Shown here in pieces: positions 3,740 to 9,798 of a stretch of 13,264 nucleotides of DNA; the first letter of the stretch is position 1, and every line of letters starts with the position of its first letter. Under the pieces are notes generated by a model. The model was not told the origin of the DNA. It did not search any database and saw only the letters and a list, made by a program, of their open reading frames with translations. The position numbers and the translations under genes were made by a program. Origin of the DNA: Eggerthellaceae bacterium (lineage in GTDB: Bacteria > Actinomycetota > Coriobacteriia > Coriobacteriales > Eggerthellaceae); assembly GCA_900754955.1 (NCBI GenBank), contig CAAEEV010000184.1, forward strand, positions 1 through 13,264. Direction: 5' to 3'.

Positions 3740-3850
3740 ATCGCAAGAGACTGGGTGTGGATGGGGCCTCTGGAGAATCCCGGTTACCCGGGTGCCGAAG
3801 GGGCAAGGAGCGCGCGCCGCTCCGAAACTCTCAGGCCAAAGGACAGAGCG
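3740..3850 (+). promoter_or_regulatory. Glycine riboswitch (gcvT-type aptamer)
   Basis: The conserved core is plain: CTCTGGAGAA (from 3768), a CCCGG/CCCGGG hairpin, TGCCGAAGGGGCAA, a GGAGCG/CGCTCC stem, then AAACTCTCAGGCCAAA and GGACAGAG (to 3848). P1 closes by CTCTG (3768-3772) with CAGAG (3844-3848). Only one complete aptamer is present. The leader (about 3740-3766) may contribute a short upstream helix. It lies between a strong promoter and a sodium:alanine/glycine symporter, the usual target of single glycine aptamers. The downstream region 3890-3955 can form alternative helices involving the ribosome-binding site, which suggests translational control. Confidence 0.92.
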
Positions 3851-3890
3851 AAGCCGCTTCAAGCTGCACGCATCACCTTCCTTGTTGGAC

Positions 3891-8094: not shown

Positions 8095-8778
8095 ATGGAC
8101 ACTGCTGCAGCAGAGAGCACCGTCGGCATCGACGTGCAGGCAGCCGGCACGGGCGCAAAAGCCCCTGCGACGATGCCGCTCGTCATCACCATCGCCCGCG
8201 AGTATGGCAGCGGAGGACGCGAGATCGGCGAGCGCCTCGCCGCGCGCCTCGGCATCGCCTACTACGACAAGGTGCTGCTGAGCAAGATCGCCGACAAGAG
8301 CGGCATGGCGAGCGAGGTGGTGGAATCCCTCGACGAGAAGAATCCGAGCTTCATGTTCTTCAATCCGAGCCGATTCTTCGCCGGCACGTTCGGCGACACA
8401 CTTCCCGGCCAGATCCACGCCGCCGAAGTCGAGCTCATCCGCTCGCTTGCGCAGGAGAAGCCGAGCGTGATGGTGGGCCGGTGCATCGACTCGCTGCTCG
8501 ACGAGCACAGCAACGTCGTGCGCCTGTTCATCAACGCGCCGCTCGACGACCGCATCCACCGCGTGATGAAGCGCAACGACCTCAACGCCGAAGACGCCCT
8601 TGCGCGCATCCGCCACATCGACAAGGAGCGCGCGAACTACTACCGCTACATGAGCGATCGCAAGTGGGGCTTCGCGCCCAACTACGATCTCTGCCTCAAC
8701 AGCGCCGCCGTGGGGATCGAGGGCTCGGTCGACATGATCGTGAGCTTCCTCGAGAAGGCGGGGAAGCTGCCGCTGTAG
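8095..8778 (+). CDS. Cytidylate kinase-like family protein
   Basis: 227 residues from ATG at 8095, with GGAG 8 nt upstream. The first 27 residues are an Ala-rich tail. The core starts MPLVITIAREYGSGGREIGERLAARLGIAYYDKVLL, a P-loop variant (REYGSGGREIG, res. 35-45) diagnostic of the cytidylate kinase-like group (Pfam Cytidylate_kin_2). Later come VMVGRCIDSLL (the VxxGR strand-turn), a VVRLFINAPLDDRIHRVMKRND segment like the NMP-kinase lid region, and IDKERANYYRYMSDRKWG, typical of this subfamily. The fold binds ATP and a nucleotide-like substrate, but the true substrate of the group is not established, and it should not be taken as the housekeeping Cmk. It stands alone, divergent from the MATE operon, and ends before the parS/terminator palindrome. 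Confidence 0.88.
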   Translation: MDTAAAESTVGIDVQAAGTGAKAPATMPLVITIAREYGSGGREIGERLAARLGIAYYDKVLLSKIADKSGMASEVVESLDEKNPSFMFFNPSRFFAGTFGDTLPGQIHAAEVELIRSLAQEKPSVMVGRCIDSLLDEHSNVVRLFINAPLDDRIHRVMKRNDLNAEDALARIRHIDKERANYYRYMSDRKWGFAPNYDLCLNSAAVGIEGSVDMIVSFLEKAGKLPL

Positions 8779-8867: not shown

Positions 8868-8905
8868 AAAAGGAGGGTGTTTCACGTGAAACACCCTCCT
8901 TTTTT
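8868..8905. terminator. 36-bp perfect palindrome acting as bidirectional terminator
   Basis: Positions 8868-8885 and 8886-8903 are exact reverse complements (AAAAGGAGGGTGTTTCAC and its complement), followed on plus by T to 8905 and on minus by TTTT. It lies between the convergent cytidylate-kinase-like and shikimate-kinase-like genes, so both transcripts would form a GC-rich hairpin with a U tract. Its core is a consensus parS site. Confidence 0.85.
8878..8893. promoter_or_regulatory. parS site (ParB-binding), exact consensus
   Basis: TGTTTCACGTGAAACA matches the widely conserved bacterial parS consensus TGTTNCACGTGAAACA at every position. ParB loads here and slides along DNA to form the partition complex that segregates replication origins. 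It is embedded at the centre of the terminator palindrome. parS sites normally cluster near oriC, which suggests an origin-proximal location. Confidence 0.88.
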
Positions 8906-8943: not shown

Positions 8944-8959
8944 TGTTTCGCGTGAAACA
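8944..8959. promoter_or_regulatory. Second parS-like site, one mismatch
   Basis: TGTTTCGCGTGAAACA differs from the consensus by one base (G for A at position 7). It is flanked by matching GAA/TTC so that the arms extend to 9 bp (8941-8949 and 8954-8962). It lies 66 bp centre-to-centre from the perfect site and, unlike it, has no T tract, so it is not a terminator. Confidence 0.7.
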
Positions 8960-9075: not shown

Positions 9076-9603
9076 CTATTTCAGCGCGTCGGCGACCTTG
9101 CGGGCCGCTGCCGTGATGGAAAGATCGTCCACGTCAACCGTGATATCGGCATAACGCTCGTAGAGGGGCTTGCGCTCGTCGTACAGCTCGCGCAGGCTCA
9201 TGCCGCGGCCGCCCTTCATCACCACGCCGCGTTCGGAGAGGTCGGCCAGGCGCCCGCGCAGCTCGTCGTAGCTGATCTTCAGGTACACCACACGCCCGAT
9301 GGAACCGAGATGCTGCATGGCCTCGTCGGAGTACACCGCCGAACCGCCCGTCGCGATGACAGTGTGCTCAGCCGTCATGCCGATGAGCACCTGGTTCTCC
9401 ACCTCGATGAAGCCCTCGGGGCCGCATGCGTCGATGATGCGTTCGAGCGTTTTGTCGCATTGCTGTTGAATGACCAGATCGGCGTCGACGAAGTCGTAGT
9501 TCATGATCTTCGCCAGCACGATGCCGAGCGTCGACTTGCCCGCACCCGGCATGCCGATCAGAATGATGTTGTCCTTACCGGGCTCGTTGATCTGCTCTTT
9601 CAT
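9076..9603 (-). CDS. Shikimate kinase-like protein, divergent
   Basis: 175 residues from ATG at 9603, with AGGAGG 4 nt upstream; the frame extends further up, but this ribosome site decides the start. The Walker A loop is GMPGAGKST (17-25), and DFVDADLVIQQ (38-48) keeps the D.D of the substrate-binding strand. The lid and the ERKPLYERYADITVD region (143-157) resemble AroK. Two AroK hallmarks differ: the GGG substrate loop reads ATGGSAVY (84-91), and the FRxxE arginine is replaced (GFIEVENQVL, 64-73). Canonical AroK phosphorylates shikimate in the chorismate pathway; this variant clade may act on something else. No other aro gene is nearby. A leader hairpin (ACACG..CGTGT with CGGC..GCCG, about 9615-9643) lies just upstream of the ribosome site. 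Confidence 0.8.
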   Translation of the reverse strand: MKEQINEPGKDNIILIGMPGAGKSTLGIVLAKIMNYDFVDADLVIQQQCDKTLERIIDACGPEGFIEVENQVLIGMTAEHTVIATGGSAVYSDEAMQHLGSIGRVVYLKISYDELRGRLADLSERGVVMKGGRGMSLRELYDERKPLYERYADITVDVDDLSITAAARKVADALK

Positions 9604-9798
9604 CAGGCCTCCTGTACACGACGGCCTATCTGCCGACGCGTGTCGTTCAATGTGAAATCGCCTGCCGTACCGCACGGCCGAAACTCGGCACGCAGCGCAC
9701 AGCGTCTTTCAGCATACACCGACGTACCCCCGCGCGCCAGCAGGCGCAGCCCAAAGAGCGCTTCCGCACGTCAGAGGTGCCGGTCCTGAACGGCGCAG

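What the first reader, a model, noticed from the sequence alone, without database searches (positions are those of the whole stretch)
8868..8905. parS site built into the core of a 36-bp perfect palindrome that is also a terminator
The exact consensus parS (8878-8893) is extended on both sides by GGAGGG/CCCTCC and AAAA/TTTT arms with no mismatch, giving an intrinsic terminator in both directions between convergent genes. The same DNA would load ParB and end transcription. ParB spreading and RNA polymerase traffic are known to interfere, so a parS that halts polymerases arriving from both sides would protect its own partition complex. I know of no standard description of this fusion.
Basis: partly seen in the sequence, partly recalled or inferred. 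Interest (0 to 1): 0.78.

Follow-up and report, generated by a model that had tools for sequence, protein, structure and literature searches.

The report
Bacterial centromere site inside transcription terminator
In a gut bacterium, a DNA site that helps pull chromosomes apart sits at the heart of a hairpin that should also stop gene reading, and similar enlarged mirror-image versions of this site turn up in other bacteria.

Summary
The feature is real. Window 8868-8903 is a perfect 36-bp palindrome, the only even perfect palindrome with arms of 7 or more in the window. Its centre is an exact parS (8878-8893). A T6 run (8900-8905) makes it a good predicted intrinsic terminator on the + strand. 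The - strand tail is only TTTTGCATT, so "both directions" is half supported.

The host clade's genomes could not be reached. In two groups of other genomes (unnamed; reached from Clostridia and Bacilli records), sites taken without regard to flanks extend far beyond a flank re-pairing null: 6 bp or more in 29 of 76 (null 1.6) and 8 of 89 (null 0.37). Some are terminator-shaped and follow rsmG or parB. Others have the opposite A/T polarity and should not terminate, so palindromic enlargement of parS is broader than termination. Viral-contig parS (capped scan) show no excess.

The proposed benefit, shielding the partition complex from polymerases, is untested; RNA polymerase crosses ParB-DNA clusters in vitro (passages). 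I saw no description in the paper listings searched.

The parts
8878..8893 (.). parS, exact 16-bp consensus TGTTTCACGTGAAACA
   Evidence: consensus TGTTNCACGTGAAACA as printed in PMC2346475
8868..8903 (.). perfect 36-bp palindrome AAAAGGAGGG-parS-CCCTCCTTTT
   Evidence: fold
8872..8905 (+). predicted intrinsic terminator for + strand transcripts: stem GGAGGGTGTTTC/GAAACACCCTCC, loop ACGT, tail T6 (8900-8905)
   Evidence: (only hairpin directly followed by T5 found by that scan in the window)
8868..8899 (-). weaker possible terminator for - strand transcripts: same stem, tail TTTT then GCATT
   Evidence: sequence; fold of the - strand
8944..8959 (.). second parS-like site TGTTTCGCGTGAAACA (1 mismatch), 3-bp palindromic extension, no T tract
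8095..8778 (+). cytidylate kinase-like gene (PF13189) whose transcript would meet the terminator
9076..9675 (-). shikimate kinase gene (PF01202), convergent neighbour

Best explanation
The element is a dual-use palindrome. As DNA, its 16-bp core is a ParB loading site, paired with a second parS 66 bp away. As RNA, the same core is the upper stem and ACGU loop of the intrinsic terminator that ends the cytidylate kinase-like transcript, with added G+C-rich arms and a T6 tail. Antisense transcripts from the shikimate kinase gene would be stopped less well. The fusion is easy to evolve because parS is already a hairpin-forming palindrome: adding complementary arms and a T tract at a gene end makes a terminator without touching ParB's contacts (contacts within the 16-mer: recalled, no call). 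Shown: sequence, perfect palindrome, predicted fold, convergent genes, recurrence of enlarged parS palindromes in other bacteria. Inferred: ParB binding, termination, and any benefit of having both at one place.
For: Exact parS plus a one-mismatch second copy. Perfect 36-bp palindrome beyond chance. Stable hairpin with G+C base directly against T6, the only such candidate in the window by the scan. An ORF from a close relative, P0001 (89 aa, contig 671 b, 95% identical over 70% of the query; sequence), reads MKHPPFFTKLN...NVSRETF: by reading frame it implies the right half of parS, the CACCCTCC arm, a T run of 7 rather than 6, and the second parS. In the Clostridia-type draw, sides with ext>=4 carry T rather than A tracts 12 to 2, against 10 to 9 for ext<4 (one-sided Fisher p 0.051). 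In 299 genomes of that group, 6 of 12 genomes with T6 after parS have ext>=4, against 2 of 13 with A6. In 5 of 5 of those T6 sites whose upstream gene I annotated, that gene is gidB/rsmG (L366, L375, L377) or parB family (L367, L369), ending within about 35 nt of the palindrome. L468 lies 5 nt from each of two convergent gene ends with T-rich tails both ways. In the Bacilli-type draw, T sides with ext>=4 have a same-strand gene end within 150 nt upstream in 13 of 19, against 20 of 55 A or neutral sides (p 0.015; 2 sides with both tracts left out).
Against: No ParB or RNA data. In the Bacilli-type draw T and A sides are about equally common (19:25 with ext>=4, 12:17 with ext<4; p 0.54), and genome tallies for the two polarities are alike (19 vs 16 of 334; 12 vs 13 of 299), so palindromic enlargement is not simply about termination. 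T versus A for gene ends alone is not significant (p 0.22). In the Clostridia-type draw only 4 of 12 T sides with ext>=4 have a gene end close upstream. The - side tail in the window is poor, and the generic scan does not list the site. None of the comparison genomes is known to be from the window's clade. Gene ends rest on a simple ORF picker.
Confidence: 0.62

Rival explanations
1. The extended palindrome is kept, or made, at the DNA level, and termination is a by-product. Either ParB-CTP loading works better on a longer symmetric site, or parS is a seed for palindrome growth by template-switch correction of near-palindromes during replication (mechanism recalled, no call).
For: Long perfect parS palindromes occur with reversed A/T polarity that should not terminate, e.g. 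TTTTATAAATT-parS-AATTTATAAAA; 9 of 16 genomes have ext 9-20 at the matched site. Arms covary with almost no one-sided changes: on 8 related sites (7 distinct) all 126 cells pair, 5 pairs change on both sides and 1 on one side. Other palindromes with arms of 8 or more in the same loci extend a further 6 bp in 1 of 20 (several of the 20 are Noc-type sites), against 31 of 110 parS (p 0.019), which favours a parS-linked cause over general palindrome growth.
Against: In the window, and in the Clostridia-type draw, the extended sites lean to terminator polarity (12:2). The window arms have the classical terminator layout, G+C base against a T tract. Viral-contig parS show no extension beyond the null (140 sites from a capped scan), against a purely mutational cause. 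Rows were chosen for long palindromes.
Confidence: 0.25
2. An ordinary terminator that happens to contain a parS-like core, with no role in segregation.
For: Terminators between convergent genes are commonplace; no ParB data; the distance to oriC is unknown because no genome is held.
Against: An exact 16-mer and a second 15-of-16 copy 66 bp away, where 0.01 matches in all are expected at up to 3 mismatches. 14 of 14 other genomes with such palindromes that I tested encode a ParB-type HTH protein.
Confidence: 0.08
3. One reading: a two-way terminator selected to protect the partition complex from RNA polymerase arriving from both sides.
For: Convergent genes; highly transcribed genes near parS oriented against SMC travel disturb chromosome arm alignment in Caulobacter (PMC5583512, summary passage).
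Against: Weak - side tail; RNA polymerase traverses ParB-DNA clusters in vitro (PMC10681803, passages); in the draws 109 of 165 sites extend by less than 4 bp.
Confidence: 0.12

Closest known systems
Chromosomal parS (ParB/Spo0J loading site)
   Same: Exact 16-bp consensus, a pair of sites close together, intergenic
   Different: The consensus is given as a 16-bp element (PMC2346475 passage); here it is the core of a 36-bp perfect palindrome with a T tract
Intrinsic (Rho-independent) terminator between convergent genes
   Same: G+C-rich stem, 4-nt loop, T6 tail, downstream of a gene end
   Different: Upper stem and loop are a sequence-specific protein loading site and cannot vary freely
DNA uptake sequences in Neisseria/Haemophilus terminators
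   Same: A DNA recognition sequence proposed to double as a terminator stem; a passage of PMC2346458 cites a study for this (Ambur 2007 in its reference list) and calls it contentious
   Different: There two copies in inverted orientation make the stem; here one palindromic parS makes it, and the ligand is ParB, not uptake machinery

Membership tests
chromosomal parS | 16-bp consensus TGTTNCACGTGAAACA | tested here: met
   exact match 8878-8893; consensus as printed in PMC2346475
chromosomal parS | more than one copy, clustered | tested here: met
   second site 8944-8959, 1 mismatch, 66 bp away
chromosomal parS | near oriC and the parAB genes | not testable with these tools
   no genome held for the window; none of the 7 window proteins scanned against Pfam is ParA or ParB
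chromosomal parS | bound by ParB in vivo | not testable with these tools
   needs ChIP-seq
intrinsic terminator | stable G+C-containing hairpin | tested here: met
   -25.3 kcal/mol, z -7.5
intrinsic terminator | T tract directly after the stem, + strand | tested here: met
   T6 8900-8905; the separate consensus scan does not list the site
intrinsic terminator | T tract directly after the stem, - strand | tested here: inconclusive
   TTTT then GCATT; not picked by the scan, which asks for T5
intrinsic terminator | transcript 3' ends at the site | not testable with these tools
   needs Term-seq

The most novel reading that the evidence does not exclude
Bacterial centromere sites have an undescribed second layer. 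In many lineages parS sits at the centre of a much longer perfect palindrome, up to 20 bp beyond the 16-mer on each side, whose arms change in step. In some copies the long palindrome also serves as the terminator of the neighbouring gene (rsmG, parB or others), so one piece of DNA loads ParB and clears polymerases from the loading site.
Probability: 0.35. Interest if true: 0.78.

Novelty: new variant of a known kind. Interest (0 to 1): 0.6.

Why it matters
If right, parS is not just a 16-mer. Its palindromic surroundings and its position at gene ends would be part of centromere design, and transcription and ParB/SMC loading would be coupled in cis at the site itself. It gives a simple, testable set of variants (arms without parS, parS without arms, arms with and without T tract). 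It would also show that a segregation site can serve as a terminator, as proposed for DNA uptake sequences.

Tried and rejected
Host clade: no own genome. The single genome-contig scan, with the cytidylate kinase-like protein, returned 13 loci whose record titles name Clostridia groups (Clostridia, Clostridiales, Oscillospiraceae, Lachnospiraceae), Bacilli and Prevotella, none Eggerthellaceae. The window's DNA has no megablast match in the phage or plasmid collections. One window protein finds nothing in viral contigs. So the decisive Eggerthellaceae comparison was not possible; the family name rests on names of related proteins (Eggerthella, Enteroscipio, Raoultibacter, Eggerthellaceae).

Simple T-versus-A tallies did not separate terminators; only looking at the arms showed why. 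The polarity run used the wrong genetic code for several TGA-reading genomes and was replaced. A Noc-type site (recalled consensus ATTTCCCGGGAAAT) was searched as a comparison palindrome, but 3 of 61 genomes had it: inconclusive. ORF-based search for relatives of the intergenic region gave one close relative; the other two hits match only the antisense end of the shikimate kinase gene. The nearest plasmid hit, Actinomyces oris, shares parS with 1 more bp of palindrome and no T tract; two other hits (Neisseria) were not opened.

Draws and drops: 75 of 109 genomes had parS but the listing was cut. By my count of the listings, 53 genomes with 92 sites were in hand; 89 sites were used. Two sites, both of one genome (G086), lay too near an end, which leaves 52 genomes; the one other site lost was, I infer, removed as a duplicate. 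In one search all 39 genomes and all 76 sites were used (site total summed by me from its table).

Full report
OBSERVATION. The window holds an exact parS at 8878-8893 and a one-mismatch copy at 8944-8959; 0.01 matches with up to 3 mismatches are expected by chance. The first lies at the centre of AAAAGGAGGG-TGTTTCACGTGAAACA-CCCTCCTTTT, a perfect 36-bp palindrome at 8868-8903. It is the only even perfect palindrome with arms of 7 or more in 13,264 bases; the largest arm in 200 simulated sequences was 13. As RNA it folds to -25.3 kcal/mol (z -7.5). The + strand has six T directly after the G+C-rich base (8900-8905). The - strand has TTTTGCATT. A scan for a hairpin with T5 within 3 nt finds this and nothing else in the window, + strand only; a more general consensus scan lists four other - strand sites and not this one. 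The neighbours converge: cytidylate kinase-like PF13189 (8095-8778 +, 89 nt away) and shikimate kinase PF01202 (9076-9675 -, 172 nt away).

CLADE. No genome is held for the window. One ORF of a close relative (P0001) implies that the right arm, a T run one longer, and the second parS are kept elsewhere; this is inferred from translation only.

IS THE FUSION A ONE-OFF? Sites were taken by the 16-mer alone. 'Ext' is the number of perfectly complementary base pairs beyond parS on each side; the null re-pairs left and right flanks between sites 2000 times. G302 draw (39 of 120 genomes with parS, all 76 sites): ext>=6 in 29 (null 1.62, max 6), ext>=10 in 14 (null 0.41, max 3). G001 draw (75 of 109 genomes with parS, listing cut, 52 genomes and 89 sites used): ext>=6 in 8 (null 0.37, max 4), ext>=10 in 3 (null 0.05, max 2). 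In genomes, ext>=6 occurs in 22 of 39 and 8 of 52 by my count from the list. Viral-contig parS (140 sites of a capped scan): mean 0.69 against null 0.60, no excess. The sites are not independent: many in the G302 draw come from one group of AT-rich genomes that appear to read TGA as sense.

TERMINATOR SHAPE. Several extended sites look just like the window's: AAAACTGCAA-parS-TTGCAGTTTT and AAATCCGCAA-parS-TTGCGGATTT (L452, L453), AAAAAAGTAT-parS-ATACTTTTTT (L367), AAAAAAGTTA-parS-TAACTTTTTT (L369), AAGAGGA-parS-TCCTCTT (L526), and L468 between convergent genes with stops 5 nt away on both sides. In a search aimed at A4-parS-T4 shape, 19 of 334 genomes match, and at 14 of the 19 matched sites ext is 7 or more. 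In 5 of 5 sites of the set whose upstream gene I annotated (L366, L367, L369, L375, L377), that gene is gidB/rsmG or parB family. Two further extended sites without a T6 tract (L026, L031, ext 7) also lie beside parB. On 14 selected terminator-shaped sites including the window, 95.5% of cells pair and 9 pairs change on both sides; rows were chosen for long arms, so this shows arm diversity rather than an unbiased test. In the G001 draw extended sites lean to T over A tracts (12:2 against 10:9; p 0.051), though only 4 of those 12 T sides have a gene end close upstream.

AGAINST A PURE TERMINATOR READING. In the G302 draw T and A sides are about equal (19:25), and the polarity-reversed pattern found nearly as many genomes (16 against 19 of 334). 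At 9 of those 16 the matched site has ext 9-20, in 8 of the 9 the parS further from the neighbouring gene in a pair, in AT-rich genomes. Their arms covary: on 8 such sites (7 distinct) all 126 cells pair, 5 pairs change on both sides, 1 on one side. By sequence they lack a T tail in either direction. So enlargement of the parS palindrome exists apart from termination. Other palindromes with arms of 8 or more in the same loci rarely extend by 6 more pairs (1 of 20 against 31 of 110 parS; p 0.019), which argues for something particular to parS, though the control is small and includes Noc-type sites. 14 of 14 such genomes tested encode a ParB-type HTH protein.

MECHANISM. For the window I hold that one palindrome serves two readers: ParB at the DNA level and RNA polymerase through the hairpin. 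The protective benefit is not shown. PMC10681803 (abstract, introduction and discussion passages) reports that transcribing RNA polymerases traverse ParB-DNA clusters in vitro, and also cites reports of lowered gene expression near parS. [quoted passage not shown]

LITERATURE. Searches gave listings in which no title or abstract start describes a parS built into a terminator or a longer palindrome; some lists were cut (for example 15 of 49, 12 of 31, 10 of 45). I saw passages only of PMC10681803, PMC12511625, PMC2346458, PMC12779278, PMC2346475 and PMC5583512. Most subscription journals are not held, so absence is not proof. The nearest analogue seen is the DNA uptake sequence in terminators (PMC2346458 passage).

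VERDICT. A real, probably functional dual-use element in the window; the general phenomenon, enlarged parS palindromes, is supported in other groups and worth a systematic study; the specific protective story is unproven.

Noticed in passing
   Followed up: yes
L450 1471-1570 against L453 1471-1610: One genome (G350) has a single parS whose left flank matches the first and right flank the second parS of another genome (G338): it looks like a deletion by recombination between the two 16-mers, leaving 2 bp of extension where G338 has 5 and 11.
   Followed up: partly
L484 around 993, 1228, 1463, 1543; L485 1453: Several sites with core ATTTCCCGGGAAAT (Noc-type consensus, recalled) near parS, also palindromically extended, up to 13-bp arms. 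Only 3 of 61 genomes carry the core.
   Followed up: partly
L033 1566: A 32-bp perfect palindrome AAAAGTAACCACCCGTACGGGTGGTTACTTTT, terminator-like, lies just beside a parS pair.
   Followed up: no
L457, L460, L461, L464-L466 (parS at 1501); L467 and L476 on the - strand: In AT-rich genomes that appear to read TGA as sense, parS begins directly after the stop codon of a gene of roughly 420-430 codons (not annotated here), so the stop codon is part of the hairpin stem.
   Followed up: partly
window 3760-3856 +: Glycine riboswitch aptamer (RF00504) upstream of a sodium:alanine symporter family gene, PF01235.
   Followed up: no
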